64,000 nucleotides of DNA. It comes from Mycobacterium barrassiae (GTDB taxonomy: Bacteria; Actinomycetota; Actinomycetes; Mycobacteriales; Mycobacteriaceae). Positions within the stretch are counted from its first letter, which is position 1; each line of letters starts with the position of its first letter. The stretch covers positions 203,367 to 267,366 of the forward strand of contig NZ_JACKUK010000023.1 of the NCBI RefSeq assembly GCF_025822765.1. Reading direction: 5' to 3'. The notes under the pieces are model-generated. The model was not told the DNA's origin and searched no databases. It was given only the letters and a program-made list of their open reading frames with translations. This document shows positions 50,214-63,629 of the stretch, in pieces. A program made the translations under genes and the position numbers.

Positions 50214-53060
50214 TCAGCAGTACCGACCCAGTGCCGCACGCGCGCGGAGCACCGCCTCCACTCCACTCGGCGCTGCGACGAGCTCGGAGTCAGACTCCGT
50301 CTGCTCCGATGCCAATGGTGATGCTCTCCCCGCCTTGATCAGCGCGCGATGAAGCGCGAGGGCATCGTCAGCGGCACCCACCCGCTTGAGAAACCGAGTG
50401 GCATACCGCAGGTTGAGCCACTGTTGACTCCAATCCCCCACCCTGTCCCAATGATCCAGCACCGCGATGAGATCGTTTGCCGCAGTGGAAGGTTCCCCAT
50501 GAACCGCCCGGGTCGCAGCCGCCTCCATCAGCGCGATGCCTTCCCACCAGAAGTTCTGTACAGACGACGCGAGCTCGGCCGCCTCGTCGAAAACAGTCAG
50601 CGCCCGATCCGGCTCCGACTTCTTGAGCACCAACCCGAGTGCGTACCGCGCCATCGAACGCGCCGTCGGATTGCCGGTTTCGTCGGAGACCCATACCGCC
50701 TCTTCTGCGGCGGCCAATCCCTTCTCCGGAGTGCGCAACGCGGATTGGCATATCGCGATGTAGAAGAGCGTCCACACCAGCCGAATCGGGTCGTCGTCGC
50801 GCCGCGCCTTTTTCATCTCCGTCTCGTAATGCGCCAGCGCGGTCTGCGGATCCCCCTCGTACAGAGCCACGTCCGCGAGGACGTCCCCCAGGTAGGCGAC
50901 GCGCCCGTTTCCGCGGGCCGGATCGCGGCCGTCGGCGAGTGTGGCGAGTGCACGGACGCGGTCGTGATCGCCTTGGTTCCACGCACCACGCGCAGCGAAT
51001 CCGAGGACGGCTGGGAACAGCGGGTGGTCCGGTTCGGCGACCCGCAGGAGACGCTCCGCCCAGCCTGACGCCTCGTAGCCCACACGCAGGTGGCCTAACT
51101 CAGACAATGAGCTGACCAACCGATACGCCAGGTCGACGTGGGAGTCGGTGATGGCATATTCGAACGCCACGCGCAGGTTGCCGAAGTCGGGCAATGTCCG
51201 CTCGACCCACGCCTGCTCGTCCGGACCGTGCATTCCCGCGGCGGTTCGCTCTGCCAGCGCCGTGTAGTACTGCGCGTGGCGCTCATGGCATCGGTCATCG
51301 CCACCGGCCGCCTCGAGGCGCTCGCGGCCGTAGGCGCGCAGTGTCTCCAGTACCCAGTACCGTGCGGTCGTCGCGCCTGCGCGCATGGTCACCATGGACT
51401 TGTCGACGAGACTGCTGAGCAGTTCGAGCGTGTCTTCCTCGGCATCGCGGTCCGCACCGCACACCCCATGTGCGGCTTCGAGATCGAACCCGCCCGCGAA
51501 CACGGACAGTCGGGTGAACAGCGACTGCTCCCGTTCGGACAGCAGCCGATAGGACCAGTCGATGGTGGCGGCCAGGCTCTGTTGCCTTGGCGAGGCTCCG
51601 CGGGCGCCTCCACTGAGCAGGCGCAGCCCGTCCAACCGCCGGGCCAGGTCGAGGCTGCCCATCGACCTGATCCGCGCCGCGGCCAGTTCGATGGCGAGCG
51701 GAAGACCGTCGACCTGACGACAGATCTCGGCGACCGCACCCACGGGCTCGCGGTCGAGGTCGAAGTCGGGTCGGCCCGCCTTGGCTCGGTCGGCGAACAA
51801 CGCGGTCGCATCGGCAAGTTCCATCGGGGGCACCGCGACGATTCGCTCGCCCTCGACCCCAAGCGACTCGCGACTCGTCGCGAGCACCGAAACCCTCGGA
51901 CAGTTCTTCACGATGCGATCGACGACGTGCGCCGCGGCATCGAGCACATGTTCGCAGTTGTCCACGACCAACAAAAGCTCACGCGTGCACAAGTATTCGA
52001 TGATCGTCGACTCGATATCGAGGCCCTGCCGTTGCTGCAACCGCAACGCCGCGGCGAGGGCGAAGCCGACTGCGGCGGCGTCCTCGACCGGCGCCAGTTC
52101 GCACAGCCACACGCCATCACGAAAGCGATCCCGTTCACCGGCGGCCGCCTCCAGTGCCAGCCTGGTCTTGCCGACACCGCCGACTCCGGTGAGCGTGACC
52201 AACGGGCCGTCGCGCAGCGCTTCGGACACCATCGACAGCTCCTGCTGACGACCGATGAAGCTCGTCGCGCGCCGGGGCAGCACCACCTGGGACACCGACG
52301 GCGCAGAAGGCGTTTCCGGCGGCCTGACCTGGTCGCCCTCGAGGAGCTGCTCGTGTACAGCGCGCAACGACGCACTCGGGTCGACGCCGAGTTCCTCGAC
52401 GAGCCGGTCACGCATCTGCCGGTAGGTATCGAGAGCCTCGGCCTGGCGGCCGCTGCGGTAGAGGGCCAACATCAACTGTCCCGCCAGGCGTTCGTCGAGC
52501 GGATTGGCGTGCACCGCGGCGGTGAGGTCGGCCAGCAGCTCGCTATGTCGGCCTGCCTGCAGCGCGGCGTCGTTGCGGTCCAGAACAACCGAAAGTCGTT
52601 CCAGCTCAAGGGAACGCCGGTGATCGTTGATCCATGGGGTGTCGAGCGTCGCGAACGGGTCACCGCGCCAAAGCCCGAGCGCATGCTCGAAAAGATCGGT
52701 CGCCGCGGCCGGTGAGCTTGCCGCCCGCGCTTCAGCCACCAGCCCGCGGTACCGATGAACGTCGACGGTGGTGGGGTCAGCCTTCAGCACATAGCCGCCC
52801 GGTCCCCGAACGATCTCCACCTCGTCGGTCACCGAGAGCGCGGTCCGTAGCCGGGAAAGATAGCCCGCGATGGCGTTTCGCGCGCGGTGCGGAGGCTCGT
52901 CTGCCCACACCCGATCGATGAGTCGTTCGGCGGACACCGCGTGATTCACATCGATCAGCAGAGCGACGAGCACGCATCGCTGCCGCGCGTGCCCCACATC
53001 GATTCGGGTCCCGTCGACCAGAACTTCGACATCACCGAGTAACCGGAATTGCACTGCCAT
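50214..53060 (-). CDS. AfsR/SARP-type regulator with NB-ARC ATPase and TPR-like repeats
   Basis: The 948-residue regulator starts with an OmpR-like winged helix (MAVQFRLLGDVEVLVDGTRIDVG, residues 1-95). A BTAD domain follows at about 96-240. An NB-ARC/STAND ATPase has Walker A GVGGVGKTRLALEAA near residue 290-300 and LLLVVDNCEHVLD as Walker B. A long helical repeat region makes up the C-terminal half. Such proteins activate secondary-metabolism or stress genes after ligand-driven ATP binding. No biosynthetic cluster is next to it, so targets are unknown. Confidence 0.9.
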   Translation of the reverse strand: MAVQFRLLGDVEVLVDGTRIDVGHARQRCVLVALLIDVNHAVSAERLIDRVWADEPPHRARNAIAGYLSRLRTALSVTDEVEIVRGPGGYVLKADPTTVDVHRYRGLVAEARAASSPAAATDLFEHALGLWRGDPFATLDTPWINDHRRSLELERLSVVLDRNDAALQAGRHSELLADLTAAVHANPLDERLAGQLMLALYRSGRQAEALDTYRQMRDRLVEELGVDPSASLRAVHEQLLEGDQVRPPETPSAPSVSQVVLPRRATSFIGRQQELSMVSEALRDGPLVTLTGVGGVGKTRLALEAAAGERDRFRDGVWLCELAPVEDAAAVGFALAAALRLQQRQGLDIESTIIEYLCTRELLLVVDNCEHVLDAAAHVVDRIVKNCPRVSVLATSRESLGVEGERIVAVPPMELADATALFADRAKAGRPDFDLDREPVGAVAEICRQVDGLPLAIELAAARIRSMGSLDLARRLDGLRLLSGGARGASPRQQSLAATIDWSYRLLSEREQSLFTRLSVFAGGFDLEAAHGVCGADRDAEEDTLELLSSLVDKSMVTMRAGATTARYWVLETLRAYGRERLEAAGGDDRCHERHAQYYTALAERTAAGMHGPDEQAWVERTLPDFGNLRVAFEYAITDSHVDLAYRLVSSLSELGHLRVGYEASGWAERLLRVAEPDHPLFPAVLGFAARGAWNQGDHDRVRALATLADGRDPARGNGRVAYLGDVLADVALYEGDPQTALAHYETEMKKARRDDDPIRLVWTLFYIAICQSALRTPEKGLAAAEEAVWVSDETGNPTARSMARYALGLVLKKSEPDRALTVFDEAAELASSVQNFWWEGIALMEAAATRAVHGEPSTAANDLIAVLDHWDRVGDWSQQWLNLRYATRFLKRVGAADDALALHRALIKAGRASPLASEQTESDSELVAAPSGVEAVLRARAALGRYC

Positions 53061-53135: not shown

Positions 53136-53858
53136 TCAGTCCAGGAATCCGTGCAGCAGCGTGGCCGAACCTTCGACGTGCGCCCGCATCGCGGACGCCG
53201 CACCCTCACAGTCGCCCGCGAGGATCGCCATCACGATCGCCTCGTGCTGTTCGTCGGAGTGCGCGATGTTGCGCGGCAGCAACGGGATCTGGTCCAGCAA
53301 GCCGTTGAGCCGCATCCGGTTCTCGGCGACGAGCGGCACGAGCGACGGCGACCCGGCCGCCTCGGCGATCGCCAGATGCAGTCGCGAATCCAGCCTCCGG
53401 TAGTCATCGGGTGCTGCACCGCGGACGTCGGACAGCCGCGCCCACAACTCCTCCCGCTCCGCGGCGGTCAGTGTGCGGTTGGCGGCCATCCGCGCGGCAC
53501 CGACCTCCAGGATCTCGCGCAGCCGCAGCGCATCGTCGATCTCTGCGCGGGTTACTCCGTCGGTGCCGCCGGTCTGCCGGGGCAGTTCGTCGGCAAGGAA
53601 CGTGCCGCCGTAGCGTCCTCGCCGGGACAGCAGATATCCCGCGTCGGCCAACGACTTGATGGCCTCGCGTACGGTGTCGCGGCTGACTCCGAGCCGAGCG
53701 GCGAGTTCCCGCTCAGGCGGCAGCGACTCCCCGGGCCGCAGTACCCCGAGCCGGATGGTCTGCAGCAGACGCCCCACGGTGTCCTCGAACGCATTGCCCG
53801 GCCGCACCGGGCGCAGCAGTGCCTCGCTGGCCAGTGGTACGTCGGGATCCGCGGTCAT
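53136..53858 (-). CDS. GntR/FadR family transcriptional regulator
   Basis: The 240-residue regulator has a GntR winged helix (LLQTIRLGVLRPGESLPPERELAARLGVSRDTVREAIKSLADAGYLLSRRGRYGGTFL). An FCD helical domain with the conserved Asp/His metal or effector site follows (EIDDALRLREILEVGAARMAA, RLDSRLHLAIAEAAG). It is the last gene of the glnA4 operon, 15 bp after the SDR gene, and is the best candidate for the inverted repeat upstream of the permease. Confidence 0.9.
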   Translation of the reverse strand: MTADPDVPLASEALLRPVRPGNAFEDTVGRLLQTIRLGVLRPGESLPPERELAARLGVSRDTVREAIKSLADAGYLLSRRGRYGGTFLADELPRQTGGTDGVTRAEIDDALRLREILEVGAARMAANRTLTAAEREELWARLSDVRGAAPDDYRRLDSRLHLAIAEAAGSPSLVPLVAENRMRLNGLLDQIPLLPRNIAHSDEQHEAIVMAILAGDCEGAASAMRAHVEGSATLLHGFLD

Positions 53859-53873
53859 GGTCTAGGGCACGGA

Positions 53874-54647
53874 TCAGAGTGGGGTCACATAGTGGCCGCT
53901 TATGCCACCGTCGACGAGGAACGACGAGGCAGTGATGAACGACGCGTCGTCGCTGGCCAAAAATGCCACCGCGGCGGCGAGTTCCTCCGGTTCAGCGAAC
54001 CGTCCGACCGGAACGTGCACCAGCCGTCGCGCCGCCCGCTCCGGGTCCTTGGCGAACAGTTCCTGCAGCAGTGGCGTGTTCACTGGCCCCGGGCACAGCG
54101 CGTTCACCCTGATGCCCTGCCGTGCGTACTGCACCCCCAGCTCGCGGGACATGGCCAACACGCCACCTTTTGACGCGGTGTAGGAGATCTGCGATGTCGC
54201 CGAACCCATCACCGCCACGAACGACGCGGTGTTGATGATCGACCCCTTCTGGTTCGGGACCATGTGCCGCAGTGCCGCCTTGCAGCACAGGAACACCGAC
54301 TTCAGGTTCACGTCCTGCACCCGCTGCCACGCGTCGAGGCCGGTGTCCTCGATCAGGTCGTCCTCGGGCGGCGAGATACCCGCGTTGTTGAACGCGATAT
54401 CGACCGACCCGTGCGTCTTCGCGGCGGTGTCGAACAACGTATCCACAGCCACTTCGTCCGAGACATCCACCGGCACAAAGGTTCCGCCGAGTTCATCGGC
54501 GACCTCTTTGCCTGCGATCGGATCGATGTCACCGATGACGACGGTCGCGCCCTCGGCCTGCATGCGTCGTGCGGATGCCAGCCCGATTCCGCTCGCACCG
54601 CCGGTGATGACGGCCACCTTGCCGGCCAACCGCTGAGTCAGATCCAT
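53874..54647 (-). CDS. Short-chain dehydrogenase/reductase
   Basis: The 257-residue enzyme has the NAD motif VAVITGGASGIGLASARRM. The catalytic triad is in NTASFVAVMGSATSQISYTASKGG, with the Ser, Tyr and Lys of YxxxK. NAGIS is also present. It matches Rv2857c in place. In this operon it is the natural candidate for oxidising the hydroxyl of a gamma-glutamylated intermediate. Its ATG abuts the aldC stop (TAGATG) and is preceded by GGAGG. Confidence 0.93.
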   Translation of the reverse strand: MDLTQRLAGKVAVITGGASGIGLASARRMQAEGATVVIGDIDPIAGKEVADELGGTFVPVDVSDEVAVDTLFDTAAKTHGSVDIAFNNAGISPPEDDLIEDTGLDAWQRVQDVNLKSVFLCCKAALRHMVPNQKGSIINTASFVAVMGSATSQISYTASKGGVLAMSRELGVQYARQGIRVNALCPGPVNTPLLQELFAKDPERAARRLVHVPVGRFAEPEELAAAVAFLASDDASFITASSFLVDGGISGHYVTPL

Positions 54648-56015
54648 CTAGAGGGCCTCCTGGACTGCGAAGAATACGTTCTTGGTTTCGGTGAAGGACA
54701 GCGGCGCGTCCGGCCCGAGCTCGCGGCCGAGACCGGACTGTTTGAATCCGCCGAACGGGGTGTTGTATCGCACCGACGAGTGCGAATTGACCGACAAGTT
54801 ACCGGATTCCACCGCGCGTGACACCCGCAGCGCCCGGGAGAGATTGTCCGTCCAGATCGACCCCGACAACCCGTACGGGGTGTCGTTCGCGAGAGCGATG
54901 GCATCGGCCTCATCGTCGAACGGCAGCACCACCACGACCGGTCCGAAGATCTCCTCGCGGACGGTGCGGTCGTCACGCTGCGGCGTCAGCACGGTGGGCG
55001 GGAACCAATACCCGGGTCCCGAAGGCGCGTCACCCCGGAACGCGACGGGCGCGTCATCGGGCACGAAGGAGGCGACGGTGTTCCAGTGGGCCTTCGACAC
55101 CAGCGGACCCATCTCGGTGTCCGTCGAGCGTGGATCGCCGACGACGACACCCTTGACCGCCGGCTCCAGCAGCTCCATGAACCGGTCGTATACATTGCGC
55201 TGCACCAGGATTCGACTACGCGCGCAGCAGTCCTGGCCGGCATTGTCGAACACCCCGTACGGCGCGGTCGCGGCCGCCTGCTCCAGATCGCAGTCGTCGA
55301 ACACGATGTTTGCGCTCTTGCCGCCCAGTTCCAGCGTGACGCGCTTGACCTGGGTCGCGGCACCGGCCATCACCCGCGTGCCGACCTCGGTCGAGCCGGT
55401 GAACACGATCTTGCGCACATCGGGATGGGTGACGAATCGTTCGCCGACAACCGAACCCTTGCCGGGCAGCACCTGGAAGAGATCAGCGGGCAGCCCCGCG
55501 TCGATTGCGAGTTCGCCCAACCGGATCGTCGTCAGCGGGGTCCATTCGGCGGGCTTGATCAGCACGGCGTTCCCGGCGGCCAGGGCGGGCGCGAAACCCC
55601 ATGACGCGATGGTCATCGGAAAATTCCACGGCGTGATGACGCCGACGACGCCGAGCGGTTCGTTGAACGTGACGTCCAGCCCACCCGCGACGGGAATCTG
55701 CTTGCCCGACAGTCGCTCCGGGGTCGCCGAATAGAACTGAAGGACGTCACGGACGTGCCCGGCCTCCCACTTGGCGTTGCCGATCGGGTGCCCGGAGTTG
55801 GCGACCTCCAGCTCAGCCAACTCGTCGACGTGGGCGTCCACCGCCGCGGCGAAGGCTCGCAGCGCCGCTGCTCGCTCGGCCGGCGCCAACCGCGCCCACT
55901 GCCTCTGTGCCGATTTGGCGCGTGCGACAGCGTCGTCGACGCCCGCCTCATCGGTCTGCTCCACCGTGCGCAGCAGGTCCTCGGTCGCGGGGTTGATGAC
56001 GTCGGAGGTGCTCAA
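54648..56015 (-). CDS. aldC: NAD-dependent aldehyde dehydrogenase AldC
   Basis: The 455-residue enzyme has the ALDH motifs TPWNFPMTIASWGFAPALAAGNAVLIKPAEWTP and FTGSTEVGTRVM. The catalytic glutamate is in TLELGGKSANIV and the cysteine in NAGQDCCARSRILV. It oxidises an aldehyde to an acid, here most likely a gamma-glutamyl aldehyde. The TTG start at 56015 overlaps the upstream stop (TTGA), with AAGGGTGGG just upstream. It matches Rv2858c. Confidence 0.94.
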   Translation of the reverse strand: MSTSDVINPATEDLLRTVEQTDEAGVDDAVARAKSAQRQWARLAPAERAAALRAFAAAVDAHVDELAELEVANSGHPIGNAKWEAGHVRDVLQFYSATPERLSGKQIPVAGGLDVTFNEPLGVVGVITPWNFPMTIASWGFAPALAAGNAVLIKPAEWTPLTTIRLGELAIDAGLPADLFQVLPGKGSVVGERFVTHPDVRKIVFTGSTEVGTRVMAGAATQVKRVTLELGGKSANIVFDDCDLEQAAATAPYGVFDNAGQDCCARSRILVQRNVYDRFMELLEPAVKGVVVGDPRSTDTEMGPLVSKAHWNTVASFVPDDAPVAFRGDAPSGPGYWFPPTVLTPQRDDRTVREEIFGPVVVVLPFDDEADAIALANDTPYGLSGSIWTDNLSRALRVSRAVESGNLSVNSHSSVRYNTPFGGFKQSGLGRELGPDAPLSFTETKNVFFAVQEAL

Positions 56016-56749
56016 GCGCCCACCCTTTCGTTCGCATAGGCCGCTGCGGCCTCGACGGCCGCCGCGAACAGCCTGAGGTCGTCCAGCCGTTCTTCGGGAT
56101 GCCACTGGACAGCCACGACAAAGTTGTGGCCAGGCATTTCCACCGCCTCGATCACGTCGTCGCTGTCCTGCGCGCTGACGATCAACCCGTGGCCCAGCGT
56201 GTCGATGGCTTGATGGTGGTAGCACTGCGCGTCCGACGACTCGCCGATGATCGCGGCCAGTCGCGTGCCGGCGATCGTGCGCACCGACGATGTGGAGAAC
56301 ACTGCGTTGCCCTGCTGATGGCGGGTGTGGCCGAGGACGTCGGGCAGGTGCTGATGCAACGTGCCGCCGAGCGCGACGTTGAGCACCTGGGCGCCACGGC
56401 AGATGCCCAGTACCGGCATGCCGCGCTGAATCGCACCGCGTACCAACGCGAATTCGAAGGCGTCGCGCATGCGGTTGTCTTCGACCGGCTCGTCGGTGGC
56501 GGGATGCCGGTCCTGGCCGTAGCTGGCGGGTCCCACGTCCCGTCCGCCGGTGATGATCAGCCCGTCGAGCCCGTCGAGCACCGTGTCGGCGATGTCGGCG
56601 TCGACCGGCTGCGGCGGCAACAGCACCGAGATGCCCCCGGCGAGGCCGACACCCTCGAAGTAGATCGCGGGCAGGAAGCTGGCCCGAACGTCCCACACGC
56701 CGGTCTGCGCCTGCTGCAGGTAGGTGGTCAACCCGAGAACGGGCCGCAC
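56012..56749 (-). CDS. Gamma-glutamyl-GABA hydrolase-like class I glutamine amidotransferase (PuuD type)
   Basis: The 245-residue enzyme has RPVLGLTTYLQQAQTGVWD and ITGGRDVGPASYG. The nucleophile cysteine lies in PVLGICRGAQVLNVALGGTLHQHLP, and the His-x-Glu pair in AVQWHPEERLDD. It releases glutamate from gamma-glutamyl compounds, as PuuD does in putrescine use. The GTG at 56749 starts at the domain edge. A TTG at 56839 gives 30 extra low-complexity residues. Rv2859c is the orthologue. Confidence 0.9.
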   Translation of the reverse strand: MRPVLGLTTYLQQAQTGVWDVRASFLPAIYFEGVGLAGGISVLLPPQPVDADIADTVLDGLDGLIITGGRDVGPASYGQDRHPATDEPVEDNRMRDAFEFALVRGAIQRGMPVLGICRGAQVLNVALGGTLHQHLPDVLGHTRHQQGNAVFSTSSVRTIAGTRLAAIIGESSDAQCYHHQAIDTLGHGLIVSAQDSDDVIEAVEMPGHNFVVAVQWHPEERLDDLRLFAAAVEAAAAYANERVGA

Positions 56750-56825
56750 CTTGTTTCCGCGAGCTGGGCCCCCGCGTGAGCTGGGGAACGCGGAGTCCCC
56801 CTTTTTGGCCCAACTCGGCGCGGAA

Positions 56826-58217
56826 CTAGAGCCGCTCAAAGCCCCGCACCCTTTCCCAATCCGTGACCGCGGCGTTGAACGCGGTCAGCTCGACGCGGGC
56901 GTTGTTGAGGTAGTGCTCGACGACGTCGTCGCCGAACGCCGCGCGTGCCACCTCGGACTTCTCGAACAGCCCCGCGGCCTCGGAGAGCGTCGTCGGAAGC
57001 CGTTCTGCGCCACTGGTATACGCGTTGCCCTCCATCGGGTCGGGCAACTCGAGTTCACGTTCGATGCCGTAGAGACCACCGGCGATCAGGGCCGACACCG
57101 CGAGGTACTGATTGACGTCTCCGCCAGGTGCGCGGTTCTCCATCCTCATCCCGTGGCCGTGCCCGACCACCCGCAGTGCACAGGTCCGGTTATCAAGACC
57201 CCACGCGATCGCGGTCGGCGCGAAACTGCCGTCGACGAATCGCTTGTAGGAGTTGATGTTCGGCGCGTAGAACAGCGAGAGTTCCCTCAGCGTCGCGAGC
57301 TGGCCGGCGATGAAGCTGCGGAACATCGGCGACATACCCAGCGGATCGGAGTCGTCGGCGAACACGGCGGAGCCGTCCTCACCGCGGAACGAGATGTGGA
57401 TATGGCAGCTGTTGCCTTCGCGCTCATCGAATTTCGCCATGAACGTCAGGCTCTTGCCGTGCTGATCGGCGATCTCCTTGGCACCGTTCTTGTAGATCGT
57501 GTGGTTGTCGCAGGTGACCCGCGCATGGTCGTAGCGGAAGGCGATCTCCTGCTGACCGAGGTTGCACTCCCCCTTGACGCCTTCGCAGTACATGCCCGCA
57601 CCCGCCATGCCCAGCCGGATGTCGCGCAGCAACGGCTCCATCCGCGTCGAGGCCAGCATCGCGTAGTCGACGTTGTAGTCCGTCGCCGGAGTCAGCCCGC
57701 GGTATCCCTTCGCCCAGGCGTCGCGGTAACCGTCGTCGAACACCATGAATTCCAGTTCGGTGCCCACGTAAGGCACGAGTCCCTTTTCGGCCAGCAGGTC
57801 GATCTGCCGGTTGAGGATGCTGCGCGGTGCCTGGGTGACCGGGTTTCCGTCGGTCCACGACAGATCGGCCATCACCAACGCGGTGCCCGGCAGCCACGGC
57901 AGCAGCCGAAGGGTCGAGAAGTCGGGCGTCATCACCATGTCGCCGTAGCCGGTCTCCCAGCTCGAGATCGCATAGCCGTCGACGGTGTTCATGTCGACGT
58001 CGACGGCCAGCAGGTAGTTGCAGCACTCGGCACCGTGCTCGGCGACATCCTCGACGAAGAGCCGGGCCGAGACCCGCTTACCGGTGAGCCGGCCCTGCAT
58101 ATCGCAGAACGCGACGATCACGGTGTCGATGTCGCCCGCGGCCACCAGCCCTCCGAGGTCGGCCTGCGACAAGATGCCTTTAGAGAAGCCCTTGGAGAGG
58201 CCCGGAGCGGCGCTCAT
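56826..58217 (-). CDS. glnA4: GlnA4-type glutamine synthetase homologue (gamma-glutamyl amide synthetase)
   Basis: The 463-residue protein has the glutamine synthetase fold with TELEFMVFDDGY, GECNLGQQEIAFRY, FDEREGNSCHIHISF, NINSYKRFVDG and ENRAPGGDVNQYLAV. The Tyr adenylylation site of true GlnA is absent. In Streptomyces the related GlnA4 makes gamma-glutamylethanolamide, and GlnA3-type enzymes use polyamines. The operon with hydrolase, ALDH and SDR fits such a role. It probably shares its upstream region with the divergent permease. Confidence 0.92.
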   Translation of the reverse strand: MSAAPGLSKGFSKGILSQADLGGLVAAGDIDTVIVAFCDMQGRLTGKRVSARLFVEDVAEHGAECCNYLLAVDVDMNTVDGYAISSWETGYGDMVMTPDFSTLRLLPWLPGTALVMADLSWTDGNPVTQAPRSILNRQIDLLAEKGLVPYVGTELEFMVFDDGYRDAWAKGYRGLTPATDYNVDYAMLASTRMEPLLRDIRLGMAGAGMYCEGVKGECNLGQQEIAFRYDHARVTCDNHTIYKNGAKEIADQHGKSLTFMAKFDEREGNSCHIHISFRGEDGSAVFADDSDPLGMSPMFRSFIAGQLATLRELSLFYAPNINSYKRFVDGSFAPTAIAWGLDNRTCALRVVGHGHGMRMENRAPGGDVNQYLAVSALIAGGLYGIERELELPDPMEGNAYTSGAERLPTTLSEAAGLFEKSEVARAAFGDDVVEHYLNNARVELTAFNAAVTDWERVRGFERL

Positions 58218-58356
58218 TCTCAGCGACCCTGCCCTTCGTCAATGTTCAAGTGCGTTCGAGACCCTCGGTGGTCGAAACGACGGGGACGACGAGTAGTCAA
58301 CCATTGAATTTGCCCCACCCTGGTGATCATCCCGGTCTTTTCCATAATTGTCGCGC

Positions 58357-58393
58357 CCAAAGGTAGGACGCCAGACCTTTGGCAGTCTATTCT
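58357..58393 (+). promoter_or_regulatory. Permease promoter with 8-bp inverted-repeat operator
   Basis: CCAAAGGT (58357-58364) and ACCTTTGG (58375-58382) form a perfect 8-bp inverted repeat around 10 bp. TATTCT (58388-58393) fits the -10 consensus. The expected -35 falls inside the spacer of the repeat, so a bound repressor would block the promoter. The GntR gene of the opposite operon is the likely source. Confidence 0.6.
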
Positions 58394-58429
58394 CCGTATG
58401 CCCCCCAACCGCTAGAAGGAGCACCCCGC

Positions 58430-59962
58430 ATGGCCGACGAAAAGATGAAGAGCTCGGGCGGCGTCACCTACAGCCAGGCAGGCGAGGGCTACTTCGAGAA
58501 GCGGCAGCTCAAACGGACCGCCGGCTTCTGGGGCCTATGGGGCATCGGCATCGCGGCCGTCATCTCCGGCGACTTCTCCGGCTGGAACTTCGGCATCGGC
58601 GCGGCCGGCTGGGGCGGCTTGGCGATCGCCTCGATCCTCATCGTGATCATGTACTTCGGCATGTTGTTCTCGATCGGCGAGATGTCGGCGGCCATGCCGC
58701 ACACGGGCGGCGCGTACTCGTTCGCGCGCGCGGCGATGGGGCCGTGGGGCGGGTTCGTCACCGGCTTCGCCGAGACGATCGAGTACGTGTTCACCACCGC
58801 CGTGGTCGTCTTCTTCTCGGCGGCCTACGCCAACGCCGTCACCACCGACCTGTTCAACCTGTCCCTGCCGATGTGGTTGTGGTGGATCATCCTCTACGCG
58901 ATTTTCGTGGGGCTGAACTCGTGGGGTGCGGAGATCTCGTTCAAGTTCGCGCTGGTCGTGGCGATCATCTCCATCGGCATCCTGGTCCTGTTCGGTGTCC
59001 TCGCGATCGCCAACGGCGCAGTCGACTTCAGCAAGCTGTTCGACATCGCGCCCGATCCGGCGGCGGCGGGTTCGTCGACGTTCCTTCCGTTCGGCTGGGT
59101 CGCGATCCTTTACGCGCTGCCCTTCGCCATGTGGTTCTTCCTCGGCATCGAGGAGCTCCCCCTGGCGGCCGAGGAAGCCCATGATCCCGCGCGTGACATT
59201 CCGCGGGCGGGTCTCTGGGGTCTGGTTTCCCTCGTCGGCTGCGGCGCGATCGTGTTCTTCCTGAATCCCGCGGTCACCGGATCAGAGGCGCTGGGTGGGT
59301 CCGACGAACCGTTGCTCGACGGCTTCCGGGCATTCCTGCCCGCCAACCTGGCCGCGGTGCTCTCGGCGTTCGCTTTGATCGGCCTGCTCGCCAGCCTGCA
59401 GGGCATCATGTACGCCTACGGCCGCAACATGTACTCGCTCAGCCGTGCCGGCTACTACCCGAAGACGTTGTCGCTGACCGGGTCCCGTCAGACGCCGTAC
59501 GTGGCACTGCTGGCGGGTGCGGTGATCGGGTACGTCGCACTCCTCATCGTCAACTACAACGAGGGTGCGGGCGCAGTCGTCCTCAACATCGCCGTCTGGG
59601 GCGCGGTCCTGGCCTACGGCCTGCAGATGATCTCGTTCGTGCTGCTGCGCCGCAAGTTCCCCAATGCGAAGCGCCCGTGGGTGAGCCCCACCGGCAACTG
59701 GGGCGCGATCGTGGCACTCGTGATCGCGACGATCACGTTCATCGGCGTGCTCGTCAATCCGGACTACCGGCCCGCGGTCATCGCAATCGTGATCTTCTAC
59801 GTGTTCGGCCTGCTGGTGTTCGGGTTCTACGGCAGGCATCGCCTGGTGCTCTCGCCCGAAGAGGAGTACGCGGTGACCGGCGGCCTGCACGGATACGACC
59901 CCGCGGCCGAGGGGCTCGGCGGCACCATCGAGGACGAAATCCTCAAGGGGCATACCGAGTAG
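58430..59962 (+). CDS. APC-superfamily permease, ethanolamine permease-like
   Basis: The 510-residue protein has about 12 hydrophobic helices, beginning YFEKRQLKRTAGFWGLWGIGIAAVISGDFSGWNFGIGAAGWGG. This matches ethanolamine-permease type APC transporters as I recall them. MPHTGGAYSFARAAMGPWGGFVTGFAETIEYVFTT is a further hallmark. The ATG at 58430 has AGAAGGAG 8 nt upstream. It is divergent to glnA4 and probably brings in that enzyme's amine substrate. Confidence 0.88.
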   Translation: MADEKMKSSGGVTYSQAGEGYFEKRQLKRTAGFWGLWGIGIAAVISGDFSGWNFGIGAAGWGGLAIASILIVIMYFGMLFSIGEMSAAMPHTGGAYSFARAAMGPWGGFVTGFAETIEYVFTTAVVVFFSAAYANAVTTDLFNLSLPMWLWWIILYAIFVGLNSWGAEISFKFALVVAIISIGILVLFGVLAIANGAVDFSKLFDIAPDPAAAGSSTFLPFGWVAILYALPFAMWFFLGIEELPLAAEEAHDPARDIPRAGLWGLVSLVGCGAIVFFLNPAVTGSEALGGSDEPLLDGFRAFLPANLAAVLSAFALIGLLASLQGIMYAYGRNMYSLSRAGYYPKTLSLTGSRQTPYVALLAGAVIGYVALLIVNYNEGAGAVVLNIAVWGAVLAYGLQMISFVLLRRKFPNAKRPWVSPTGNWGAIVALVIATITFIGVLVNPDYRPAVIAIVIFYVFGLLVFGFYGRHRLVLSPEEEYAVTGGLHGYDPAAEGLGGTIEDEILKGHTE

Positions 59963-60053
59963 GAGCCGCGCCCAACAACCGCTAGGCCGCAGGTCGGCGG
60001 CCGCAATTGACCCATGTCACACCCGCCCCAGGTTTCGACACGGGCACCGCGGG

Positions 60054-60059
60054 TAATGT
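60054..60059 (+). promoter_or_regulatory. Candidate -10 of the NAGGN amidotransferase gene
   Basis: TAATGT ends exactly 7 nt before the GTG at 60067 and no ribosome binding site is visible. The gene pair therefore appears to have its own promoter, separate from the permease. Confidence 0.45.
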
Positions 60060-60066
60060 CGTTGGC

Positions 60067-61866
60067 GTGTGCGGAGCCGCCGGAGAGGTGCGTCTCGACG
60101 ACCAAAAACCTGATGTCACCGCGGTGTCGGCGATGGCGGAGGCCATGTCCCCCCGAGGTCCCGACGGTGCCGGTGTGTGGTCACAGGGCAGGGTCGCGCT
60201 AGGCCATCGTCGCCTCAAGATCATCGACCTGACCGAAGCCGGGGCCCAGCCCATGGTCGACTCGGAACTCGGGCTGTCCATCGCCTGGAACGGCTGCATC
60301 TACAACTACAAGGAACTGCGCCAGGACCTGGTCGACCGCGGTTACCGCTTCTTCTCGACCAGCGACACCGAGGTGCTGCTCAAGGCCTACCACCAGTGGG
60401 GCGACCGGTTCGTCGACCACCTCCAGGGCATGTTCGCCTTCGCGATCGTCGAGCGCGACAGCGGCCGGGTGCTGCTCGGCCGCGACAGGCTGGGCATCAA
60501 GCCGCTGTATCTCACCGAGAACTCCGCGCGTATCCGGTTCGCGTCCTCGCTTCCCGCACTGCTCGCCGGTGGTGGCGTCGACACCCGCATCGACCCCATC
60601 GCGCTGAGCCATTACCTGTCCTTCCACTCCGTCGTCCCGCCGCCGCGCACGATCCTGCGCGGCGTGACGAAGGTGCCGCCCGCATCGATCATCGCGATCG
60701 AGCCCGACGGTCGCAGAACCACCACGACCTATTGGGAACCGGACTTCCGGCGGCGGCCCGACACCGCCGACTGGTCCGAACGCGACTGGGAGGACGCCGT
60801 TCTCGAGGCGCTGCGCCTGGCCGTCAAGCGGCGACTGGTCGCCGACGTGCCGGTGGGCTGCCTGCTTTCGGGTGGCGTCGACTCCAGCCTCATCGTCGGG
60901 TTGCTCGCGGAGGCGGGCCAGACCGGGCTGTCGACGTTCTCGATCGGCTTCGAATCCGTCGGCGACGTCAAGGGCGACGAGTTCAAGTACTCCGACATCG
61001 TCGCCGAGCGTTTTGGCACCGACCACCACCAGATCCGGATCGACACCGATCGGATGCTGCCCGCCCTCGACGGCGCAATCGGCGCCATGAGCGAGCCGAT
61101 GGTCAGCCACGACTGCGTCGCCTTCTATCTGCTCAGCCAGGAAGTGGCAAAGCACGTCAAGGTGGTGCAGTCCGGCCAGGGCGCCGACGAGGTGTTCGCG
61201 GGTTACCACTGGTATCCGCCGATGGCCGACGCGACCTCCCTGGACGACGCGGTGGCCAAATACCGCACCGCGTTCTTCGACCGCGACAAGAACGGCATCG
61301 CCGAGTTCGTCACCCCGGACTACCTCGCCGAGGGCGATCCGTCCGCGGAGTTCGTCACCGAGCGCTTCGCGCGCCCAGGCGCCGAGACCGGCATCGACCG
61401 CGCCCTGCGCCTCGACACCACCGTCATGCTGGTCGACGATCCGGTCAAGCGCGTCGACAACATGACGATGGCCTGGGGCCTTGAGGGCCGCGTCCCGTTC
61501 CTCGACCACGAGCTCGTCGAGCTGGCGGCCACCTGCCCGCCCGAGCTGAAGATTGCGCACGACGGCAAGGGTGTGCTCAAACAGGCTGCCAGGAGGGTGA
61601 TTCCGGCCGCGGTCATCGATCGGCCAAAGGGGTACTTCCCCGTCCCCGCCCTCACTCACCTGGAAGGGCCCTACCTGGACATGGTCCGCGACGCGCTGTA
61701 CGCACCGGCCGCCAAGGAGCGCGGCCTGTTCCGGCCGGAGGCCGTCGACCGGCTATTGGCCGACCCGAACGGACGGCTGACCCCGCTGCGTGGCAATGAG
61801 CTCTGGCAGCTCGCGCTGCTCGAGCTGTGGCTGCAGCGACACGGCATCAACGGGTCGGCGGCGTGA
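60067..61866 (+). CDS. N-acetylglutaminylglutamine amidotransferase (asparagine synthetase-like)
   Basis: The 599-residue enzyme starts with GTG followed by TGC, so processing exposes Cys2 (CGAAGEVR), the Ntn nucleophile. A class II glutamine amidotransferase domain (residues 1-200; SPRGPDGAGVW, LGHRRLKIIDLTEAGAQPM) precedes the AsnB ATPase domain with LLSGGVDSSLIVGLL near residue 270. With the adjacent gene it should make the osmoprotectant N-acetylglutaminylglutamine amide. The earlier in-frame ATG at 60007 would bury the cysteine. Confidence 0.9.
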   Translation: MCGAAGEVRLDDQKPDVTAVSAMAEAMSPRGPDGAGVWSQGRVALGHRRLKIIDLTEAGAQPMVDSELGLSIAWNGCIYNYKELRQDLVDRGYRFFSTSDTEVLLKAYHQWGDRFVDHLQGMFAFAIVERDSGRVLLGRDRLGIKPLYLTENSARIRFASSLPALLAGGGVDTRIDPIALSHYLSFHSVVPPPRTILRGVTKVPPASIIAIEPDGRRTTTTYWEPDFRRRPDTADWSERDWEDAVLEALRLAVKRRLVADVPVGCLLSGGVDSSLIVGLLAEAGQTGLSTFSIGFESVGDVKGDEFKYSDIVAERFGTDHHQIRIDTDRMLPALDGAIGAMSEPMVSHDCVAFYLLSQEVAKHVKVVQSGQGADEVFAGYHWYPPMADATSLDDAVAKYRTAFFDRDKNGIAEFVTPDYLAEGDPSAEFVTERFARPGAETGIDRALRLDTTVMLVDDPVKRVDNMTMAWGLEGRVPFLDHELVELAATCPPELKIAHDGKGVLKQAARRVIPAAVIDRPKGYFPVPALTHLEGPYLDMVRDALYAPAAKERGLFRPEAVDRLLADPNGRLTPLRGNELWQLALLELWLQRHGINGSAA

Positions 61867-63629
61867 CCGCGTTGGGACCCGATCACACCGAGGCGATCAC
61901 GCTCGGTCTGCACGACGCGTCACCGCAACACCTGGTCGACGCCATGGCCGACGACGTGGTCATCGAAATGGGTTGGGGCCGACTGATATTCGGGCAGACC
62001 TTCGCGGATCCGGCCAAGCTCGCCGAGGTCCTGCGCCACGAAGGGCCCGGTCGCCGGGACATCTGCATCTACGCCCGCGAGCCGCACGTCCTCGTCTCGA
62101 TGGCGCCCGCCGAGTTGTTCATCGACCCCAGCCACACCTACCGGCTGAGGTTCTCCGACGACGACGCATCGTCCCCGGCCCCCACCGGATTCACCGTTCG
62201 CTCCCTCGAACGGGCCGAAGAGGCCGAGGAGATCAACCGGGTCTACATGCGCTGCGGCATGGTGCCGGCACCCGTGGAGGTGCTGTGGGAAAACAGCGAA
62301 CAACGCGACGCGCTCGACTATCTGGTGGCCGTGCGTGACGATGACGGCTCGCTGGTGGGCACCGTGACCGGCGTCGATCACAAGCGGTTGTTCGATGACC
62401 CCGAGAACGGTTCGAGCCTGTGGACGCTGGCCGTCGACCCGACCACCAGCCTGCCCGGCGTCGGCGCTGCGCTCACCCGTGCGCTCGCGAGCCTCTACCG
62501 CGAACGCGGCCGGGCCTACATGGATCTGTCGGTGGCCCACGACAACTCCGCCGCGATCGGACTGTACGAGAAGCTGGGCTTCGAGCGGGTCCCGGTGATG
62601 GCCGTCAAGCGCAAGAACGCCATCAACGAACCGTTGTTCACCCATCCGCCCGAGACCGTCGACGATCTGAACCCGTACGCGCGGATCATCGCCGATGAGG
62701 CGATGCGCCGAGGGATCTGGGTCGAGATCCTCGACGCCGAGGCAGGCGAGATGCGGCTGTCCCACGGCGGGCGCAGCGTCATCACCCGAGAGTCGTTGTC
62801 GGAGTACACCTCTGCGGTGGCCATGGCGCGATGCGATGACAAGCGGCTGACGCGGCGGCTGGTGGCGGAGGCGGGCATCCAGGTGCCGAAGGGTCGGCTC
62901 GCCACCTTCGACGAGCACGACCACGCCTTCCTCGAAGAGGTCGGCGACGTCGTGGTCAAGCCCACCCGCGGCGAACAGGGCAAGGGCATCACCGTCGGCG
63001 TCGACGGCCCCGAGGAACTGGACGCCGCACTGCGCCGGGCCCGTGAAGAGCACCCCGCGGTGCTGATCGAGCAGCGTGCTCCCGGCGACGACCTGCGCCT
63101 CGTGGTGATCGACGGCAAGGTGGTGGCCGCCGCCATCCGCCGGCCGGCCGAGATCCTCGGCACCGGCCACCACACGATCCGCGAACTGATCGAAACGCAG
63201 AGCAGGCGCAGGGCGGCCGCCACCGGCGGCGAGTCCCGCATCCCGATCGATGACGTGACCGAGGCGACGGTCGCCGAGGCCGGGTATTCCTTCGACGACG
63301 TGCTCCCCGAAGGCGAGAGCTTGCGGGTGCGCCGGACGGCGAACCTGCATCAGGGCGGCACCATCCACGATGTGACGGCGACAGTGAACCCGCACCTGTG
63401 CGAGGTCGCGGTCCGCGCCGCCGAAGCCATCGGCATCCCCGTGACGGGCATCGACCTGTTGGTGCCCGACGTCACCGCGCCGGAGTACGTCTTCATCGAG
63501 GCCAACGAACGCCCCGGGCTGGCCAATCACGAGCCACAGCCCACCGCAAAGGCTTTCGTCGACTACCTCTTCCCGGGCAGCCCGGCGCTGCCGCAGGCAT
63601 GGACGCCCGACGAGGCGCCCGTCCACTAG
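61863..63629 (+). CDS. N-acetylglutaminylglutamine synthetase (GNAT fused to ATP-grasp)
   Basis: The 588-residue protein has an N-terminal region of about 110 residues. A GNAT acetyltransferase domain follows at about 115-260 (LWTLAVDPTTSLPGVGAALTRALASLYRERGRAYMDLSV). A C-terminal ATP-grasp domain follows (VVVKPTRGEQGKGITVGVDG, VLIEQRAPGDDLRLVVIDGKVV, FIEANERPGLANH). This architecture is diagnostic of the NAGGN synthetase. The GTG overlaps the previous stop (GTGA). A 124-bp tandem duplication begins at its last codons. Confidence 0.9.
   Translation: MTALGPDHTEAITLGLHDASPQHLVDAMADDVVIEMGWGRLIFGQTFADPAKLAEVLRHEGPGRRDICIYAREPHVLVSMAPAELFIDPSHTYRLRFSDDDASSPAPTGFTVRSLERAEEAEEINRVYMRCGMVPAPVEVLWENSEQRDALDYLVAVRDDDGSLVGTVTGVDHKRLFDDPENGSSLWTLAVDPTTSLPGVGAALTRALASLYRERGRAYMDLSVAHDNSAAIGLYEKLGFERVPVMAVKRKNAINEPLFTHPPETVDDLNPYARIIADEAMRRGIWVEILDAEAGEMRLSHGGRSVITRESLSEYTSAVAMARCDDKRLTRRLVAEAGIQVPKGRLATFDEHDHAFLEEVGDVVVKPTRGEQGKGITVGVDGPEELDAALRRAREEHPAVLIEQRAPGDDLRLVVIDGKVVAAAIRRPAEILGTGHHTIRELIETQSRRRAAATGGESRIPIDDVTEATVAEAGYSFDDVLPEGESLRVRRTANLHQGGTIHDVTATVNPHLCEVAVRAAEAIGIPVTGIDLLVPDVTAPEYVFIEANERPGLANHEPQPTAKAFVDYLFPGSPALPQAWTPDEAPVH

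What the first reader, a model, noticed from the sequence alone, without database searches (positions are those of the whole stretch)
53136..59962. Possible complete ethanolamine (or polyamine) route by gamma-glutamylation, with transporter and regulator
Six genes fit one pathway. The permease looks like an ethanolamine permease and GlnA4 would attach glutamate. The SDR and AldC would oxidise alcohol to aldehyde to acid, and the PuuD-like enzyme would cut off glutamate, leaving glycine if the substrate is ethanolamine. A GntR regulator closes the operon. A similar first step is described for Streptomyces GlnA4. The full mycobacterial route, without a eut microcompartment, appears little studied.
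Basis: partly seen in the sequence, partly recalled or inferred. Interest (0 to 1): 0.78.

Follow-up and report, generated by a model that had tools for sequence, protein, structure and literature searches.

The report
Mycobacterial ethanolamine-use genes and their switch
Six neighbouring genes in a mycobacterium look like a complete kit for importing ethanolamine and turning it into glycine, a route already proposed for related bacteria; a DNA control site beside them also stands before the other known ethanolamine operon in about a dozen related species, which points to one shared switch.

Summary
In detail: GntR/FCD, SDR, ALDH, PuuD-like amidase and GlnA4 form a tight minus-strand operon (53136-58217) with a divergent permease (start 58430). 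The ethanolamine reading is well supported; the polyamine one is not. The route is not new: the Streptomyces cluster SCO1610-1615, with all four enzyme steps, was proposed in 2019, and a Phaeobacter equivalent in 2023. I add three lines of evidence. (1) Of the 80 named loci closest to this permease, 64 carry all six genes. (2) Two such permeases without the cluster lie next to or near EutB. (3) A palindrome, AAAGGT-N10-ACCTTT, sits in the divergent promoter (58358-58381), is found once in this 5.9 Mb genome and tracks the GntR gene over 98 congeners (both 41, neither 53, discordant 4). Of 27 exact copies in those genomes, 11 lie at glnA4 clusters, 12 upstream of eutB operons, 4 elsewhere. The GntR protein is probably the repressor of a two-route ethanolamine regulon, which I did not find described. 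This genome itself has no eutB. In sister species the permease is often replaced by another APC subfamily or absent. No assay was possible.

The parts
53136..53858 (-). GntR/FCD regulator, last gene of the operon; 50% identical to the GntR/FCD protein that stands in the EpuRI position of a Streptomyces-like (unnamed) genome
53874..54647 (-). SDR dehydrogenase, proposed gamma-glutamylethanolamide -> gamma-glutamyl-aminoacetaldehyde
   Evidence: closest solved chain 4wec_A, E 1.8e-143
54648..56015 (-). ALDH (AldC), proposed aldehyde -> gamma-glutamylglycine; TTG start inferred from overlap with the PuuD stop (the HMM scans used 54648-56045)
56012..56839 (-). PuuD-like amidase (Peptidase C26), proposed gamma-glutamylglycine -> glutamate + glycine; true start uncertain, many homologues align only from about residue 20-30
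56826..58217 (-). GlnA4, proposed gamma-glutamylethanolamide synthetase; metal and glutamate ligands kept, E327 flap residue replaced by F332 (my reading of the alignments)
   Evidence: residue list from PMC6529630 section 12
58295..58306 (.). P2, AGTCAACCATTG; reverse strand CAATGGTTGACT holds one operator-like half-site next to TTGACT; centre 69 bp from P1 in 18 of 22 loci with both
58358..58381 (.). P1 palindrome CAAAGGTAGGACGCCAGACCTTTG (arms AAAGGT/ACCTTT, 10-base spacer), proposed GntR operator
58388..58393 (+). TATTCT, -10-like box of the permease promoter directly downstream of P1
58430..59962 (+). APC permease of the ethanolamine-permease (TIGR00908) type, divergent; the open frame begins at 58379

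Best explanation
This is an ethanolamine-utilisation divergon. The permease imports ethanolamine. GlnA4 joins it to glutamate with ATP, giving gamma-glutamylethanolamide. The SDR oxidises the alcohol to the aldehyde, ALDH oxidises that to gamma-glutamylglycine, and the PuuD-like amidase releases glutamate (recycled) and glycine. The GntR/FCD protein represses the divergent promoter by binding the AAAGGT-N10-ACCTTT palindrome and probably lets go when ethanolamine or an early intermediate is present. In relatives that also have eutBC, the same protein probably controls that operon through the same palindrome. Shown here: gene content, conservation, the palindrome and its distribution. Inferred: every chemical step in this organism, the repressor-operator contact, the sign of control and the inducer.
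For: Similar cluster with a biochemically tested GlnA4 in S. coelicolor (PMC6529630). Flap E327->F as described there. All six genes in 64 of 80 named loci. Permease homologue within 5 kb of GlnA4 in 21 (own included) of the 28 class genomes that have one at E <= 1e-90, in 10 families (coordinates). The same permease type (72%) next to EutB-EutC in L170 and (67%) about 0.9 kb from a convergent EutB in L148. No EutB in this genome. P1 found once in the genome. P1 and GntR gene: both in 41, neither in 53 of 98 genomes. Exact palindrome: 23 of 27 sites at glnA4-cluster or eutB operons. P1-like site at 13 of 16 eutB loci in GntR+ genomes and 0 of 16 in GntR- genomes. EpuRI shifts the glnA4 promoter and its own (PMC8998196 passages).
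Against: No assay. The permease scores below the TIGR00908 cut-off, though the EutBC-linked L170 permease also does (322.6), while a Streptomyces-like cluster permease is above it (500.5). Only 7 of 98 genus genomes, own included, have this permease at over 80%; others have a TIGR00907-type one in its place or none. EpuRI also shifted promoters of genes the authors tie to mono- and polyamines. Harth 2005, title only in a reference list, reports glutamine synthetase activity for all four M. tuberculosis glnA genes; the review PMC9397018 says the glnA2-4 products lack it (passage). eutB-linked sites score 15.0-31.0 in my matrix, below the training sites (31.9-42.5), and 3 GntR+ eutB loci have none. 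G044 has P1 without a GntR match. Association counts are not corrected for shared ancestry.
Confidence: 0.88

Rival explanations
1. Polyamine (putrescine/spermidine) catabolism of the Puu type.
For: GS-like ligase, ALDH and PuuD-like hydrolase resemble PuuA, PuuC, PuuD; EpuRI shifts polyamine-associated promoters in S. coelicolor (passage).
Against: No PuuB-type oxidase or aminotransferase among the six genes; an SDR has no role there; GGputSyn 199 of 650 bits and PuuD equivalog 90 of 266 bits; palindrome shared with eutB operons.
Confidence: 0.05
2. The substrate is another amino alcohol (alaninol, 3-aminopropanol) or a simple amine handled as in the recalled ipu pathway of Pseudomonas, giving alanine or beta-alanine.
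For: The chemistry fits any primary amino alcohol; pocket specificity was not resolved here.
Against: Permease type and palindrome are shared with ethanolamine ammonia-lyase operons; S. coelicolor GlnA4 is called specific for ethanolamine among the compounds tested (PMC6529630 section 14).
Confidence: 0.07
3. P1 is bound not by the cluster's GntR but by another regulator, such as the nitrogen regulator GlnR, so the eutB link only reflects nitrogen control.
For: M. smegmatis needs GlnR to grow on ethanolamine (PMC4222082 passage); G044 has P1 but no GntR match.
Against: P1 is found once in this genome and follows presence or absence of gntR in 94 of 98 genomes; PMC8998196 states that GlnR does not bind the glnA4 promoter in S. 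coelicolor (passage).
Confidence: 0.1

Closest known systems
Streptomyces coelicolor SCO1610-1615 ethanolamine cluster (GlnA4 SCO1613, EpuRI SCO1614), PMC6529630
   Same: SDR, ALDH, GlnA4, amidotransferase, regulator and, in other Streptomyces, a permease; same proposed steps to glycine + glutamate
Phaeobacter sp. MED193 gamma-glutamyl ethanolamine route, PMC10132767 (similar steps proposed for Chromohalobacter salexigens)
   Same: Same four chemical steps; the proteins rise on phosphorylethanolamine (passages)
   Different: TRAP transporter EtoX and an RpiR regulator in Phaeobacter instead of an APC permease and GntR
EutBC ethanolamine ammonia-lyase with Eat-type permease
   Same: Same substrate and permease family; in 13 of 16 eutB loci of GntR+ congeners a P1-like palindrome
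   Different: No glutamylation; B12-dependent lyase giving acetaldehyde (recalled); no EutB in this genome
E. coli Puu putrescine pathway
   Same: Logic of gamma-glutamyl protection and release (recalled)
   Different: Oxidase instead of SDR (recalled); equivalog HMM scores far below cut-offs

Membership tests
GlnA4-type gamma-glutamyl ethanolamine cluster | GS-like ligase with metal and glutamate ligands kept but the ammonium-site E327 lost | tested here: met
   alignment to own paralogues; residues; D50 and Y179 positions are ambiguous
GlnA4-type gamma-glutamyl ethanolamine cluster | SDR, ALDH and gamma-glutamyl amidase in the same cluster | tested here: met
GlnA4-type gamma-glutamyl ethanolamine cluster | Ethanolamine permease in the cluster | tested here: inconclusive
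   TIGR00908 best but 343 < 381.75 bits; linkage to GlnA4 and EutB supports it
GlnA4-type gamma-glutamyl ethanolamine cluster | Cluster regulator orthologous to EpuRI | tested here: inconclusive
   50% identical to the GntR/FCD protein in the EpuRI position of a Streptomyces-like genome; SCO1614 itself was not compared
GlnA4-type gamma-glutamyl ethanolamine cluster | Ligase activity on ethanolamine | not testable with these tools
   needs an enzyme assay
EutBC ethanolamine pathway | EutB present in the genome | tested here: not met
   no PF06751 match in G000; the control rings in E. coli
EutBC ethanolamine pathway | Microcompartment shell proteins | not tested
   no search made
Puu polyamine pathway | GlnA4 over the gamma-glutamylputrescine synthetase cut-off | tested here: not met
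   199 of 650 bits
Ipu isopropylamine/alaninol pathway | IpuC-like substrate range | not tested
   recalled pathway only

The most novel reading that the evidence does not exclude
One GntR/FCD repressor, acting at AAAGGT-N10-ACCTTT, governs ethanolamine use in mycobacteria as a dedicated regulon: it controls both chemically unrelated routes (gamma-glutamylation and ammonia-lyase) and whichever permease gene currently occupies the divergent slot, and its operator is lost where the regulator is lost.
Probability: 0.78. Interest if true: 0.6.

Novelty: new member of a known kind. Interest (0 to 1): 0.5.

Why it matters
It makes a firm, testable prediction for what glnA4, a little-studied glutamine-synthetase paralogue of mycobacteria, does, and offers candidate genes for the published growth of M. 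smegmatis on ethanolamine (M. smegmatis itself was not examined here). The palindrome gives a cheap handle on function: where it and its GntR occur, the downstream genes are predicted to serve ethanolamine. It also shows a transporter gene being exchanged while enzymes and control site stay.

Tried and rejected
Polyamine reading: rejected on HMM scores and the missing oxidase.

Co-conservation of all six genes within the genus fails for the permease: 7 of 98 at over 80%, four more at 45-52%, although GlnA4 is in 76 (E <= 1e-80), PuuD in 93 (E <= 1e-50) and GntR in 42 (E <= 1e-40). So I looked at the slot itself. Of 15 loci whose ORFs I listed there, 12 show a permease with another N-terminus. 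Three of those were scanned and are TIGR00907-best. In L051-L053, L063 and L074 the gap is too short for a permease.

A first genus-wide palindrome search used an 11-base spacer by my miscount: matches in 4 of 98 genomes, none at these operons; its reversed control matched in 5. I keep it as a spacing control. The correct 10-base search is.

P2 could not be assigned to GlnR or to a clear -10/-35 pair. No structure was predicted. The nearest solved relatives of GlnA4 are 11zs and 5dm3; that 5dm3 is the C. salexigens enzyme is recalled. A class-III aminotransferase and an APH-type kinase near two permeases (L152, L167) reached no NCBIfam cut-off in the families listed.

Full report
What is there. 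The minus strand from 58217 down to 53136 holds GlnA4, a PuuD-like amidase, an ALDH, an SDR and a GntR/FCD regulator, nearly end to end; the likely ALDH start shares bases with the PuuD stop and the SDR start abuts the ALDH stop. The permease runs the other way from ATG 58430. The genome is 5.9 Mb in 49 contigs and unnamed. Among the closest named loci for the permease is Mycolicibacterium novocastrense (93%), so the host is a Mycobacterium in the wide sense (inference).

Pathway. GlnA4 keeps the metal and glutamate ligands of glutamine synthetase but has F in place of the E327 flap residue, as described for S. coelicolor GlnA4 (PMC6529630 section 12), which made gamma-glutamylethanolamide with a Km of 0.47 mM for ethanolamine (section 14). 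That paper already proposes the SDR, ALDH and amidohydrolase steps to glycine and glutamate (passage), and PMC10132767 reports the equivalent proteins raised in Phaeobacter on phosphorylethanolamine (passages).

Conservation. In 98 genus genomes GlnA4 is found in 76, PuuD in 93, GntR in 42, this permease at over 80% in 7, own included, and EutB in 32, not in the window's genome. EutB is commoner where GlnA4 is missing: 13 of 22 against 19 of 76 (not corrected for ancestry). In class genomes GlnA4 is found in 85 of 197 (E <= 1e-100) and permease homologues in 28 of 197 (E <= 1e-90); 21 of these 28, own included, lie within 5 kb of GlnA4 by the coordinates of the two calls. The other seven are G239, G127, G211, G122, G208, G232 and G049; that of G049 is next to EutB. 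In the printed rows only L120 and L158 of the 64 depart from the window's gene order. Two of the 9 are contig ends by their coordinates (L111, L168). Of the other seven, L170 has EutB-EutC directly before the permease, and L148 has a convergent EutB about 0.9 kb away; those permeases are 72% and 67% identical to the window's. Five show no such neighbour among the ORFs I looked at. This supports ethanolamine as the cargo.

Transporter exchange. I read synteny in 40 fetched genus loci and listed the ORFs of the slot in 15. In 12 of the 15 the slot or its surroundings holds another type of permease; the three scanned are TIGR00907-best. L042 holds both types. In L051-L053, L063 and L074 there is no room for one. 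Seven loci with more distant GlnA4 (L054-L056, L066-L068, L078) have only the four enzymes and lack P1; that they are slow growers is my guess.

P1. The divergent promoter holds P1, CAAAGGTAGGACGCCAGACCTTTG (58358-58381), just before a TATTCT box, and P2 (58295-58306). In 18 of 22 loci with both elements the centres are 69 bp apart (L041 and L105 appear to be the same genome). P1 is found once in the genome. A P1 pattern (up to 2 mismatches) is in 44 of 98 genus genomes with no reversed-pattern match. Against the sets agree in 94 of 98: both 41, neither 53, GntR only G077, P1 only G002, G044, G070. G077 has a weaker site at glnA4; G002 keeps a 74-residue gntR match; G070 is a fragmented assembly, 73% complete; G044 remains an exception. 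L063 has gntR and P1 but no permease at the locus, while L051-L053 have glnA4 but neither gntR nor P1, so P1 goes with the regulator rather than the transporter.

Two-route regulon. The exact palindrome AAAGGT-N10-ACCTTT was sought in all 98 genomes: 27 sites in 26 genomes. By coordinates, ten are at glnA4, one at a second permease site of the G033 cluster, twelve upstream of eutB (three directly, nine before the permease in front of eutB), four elsewhere (G035, G029, G015, G044). The G035 site lies at the end of an ALDH gene just before an APC permease. The reversed pattern matched in 2 genomes; an 11-base spacer matched in 4, none at these operons. None of the 16 GntR- genomes with EutB has an exact site. 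Scoring fetched regions with a matrix from 26 sites, 13 of 16 eutB loci of GntR+ genomes carry a site and 0 of 16 loci of 15 GntR- genomes do. The eutB-linked scores (15.0-31.0) lie below those of the training sites (31.9-42.5). Misses among GntR+: G041, G056, G083. Not fetched: G088 and further eutB copies in G050, G087 and G091; G036 has only about 190 bases upstream. One of 63 other stretches passed the listing score of 8. In three Streptomyces-like genomes a GntR relative (48-50%) stands where EpuRI is described, with weaker palindromes (1-2 mismatches) on both sides; of the other 5 class loci examined, 2 have one near the glnA4 start. At that looseness some chance matches are expected. 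EpuRI is reported to shift the glnA4 promoter and its own (PMC8998196 passages), and also other amine-gene promoters, which cuts against strict ethanolamine specificity there.

What is new. The search listings, and the passages read from them, showed no description of this palindrome or of shared control of glnA4 and eutBC; most subscription papers are not held. PMC4222082 (passages) reports GlnR-dependent growth of M. smegmatis on ethanolamine, and PMC3706326 (passages) an ethanolamine module induced under nitrogen stress; the passages seen do not name glnA4 as the route. The cluster is a new member of a known kind; the regulon is the part worth testing.

Noticed in passing
60007-63629 +: Two genes for the osmolyte N-acetylglutaminylglutamine amide (TIGR03104 1025 bits, TIGR03103 879 bits) follow the permease on the same strand; among the 80 named loci they accompany glnA4 only in Mycobacterium, and one of the pair lies near the permease in two Kineococcus loci.
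   Followed up: partly
L057-L062, L064, L065, L076, L077: By the PuuD-like amidase is kept in 18 of the 22 genus genomes that lack GlnA4; in 8 of these 10 fetched loci no other cluster gene was seen, so it may have another job.
   Followed up: no
L069 (G063): GlnA4 is missing while PuuD, ALDH, SDR, GntR and P1 remain, and the genome has a eutB with the exact palindrome upstream.
   Followed up: no
L152, L167: The same permease type stands near a class-III aminotransferase and a kinase-like ORF (APH in L167), possibly a kinase plus phospho-lyase ethanolamine route (the route is recalled).
   Followed up: partly
L045, L046 (G066, G033): A 50-51% permease beside a 488-490-residue ORF that looks by eye like a sugar kinase sits divergent to a TIGR00907-like permease with its own P1 site between them.
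   Followed up: no
58295-58306: P2 keeps a 69 bp centre spacing to P1 in 18 of 22 loci and occurs without P1 in three Nocardioides loci (L115-L117) and in L052; role unexplained.
   Followed up: partly
50214-53060 -: AfsR/SARP-like regulator next to the cluster; matches nearby in only some of the 40 genus loci.
   Followed up: no
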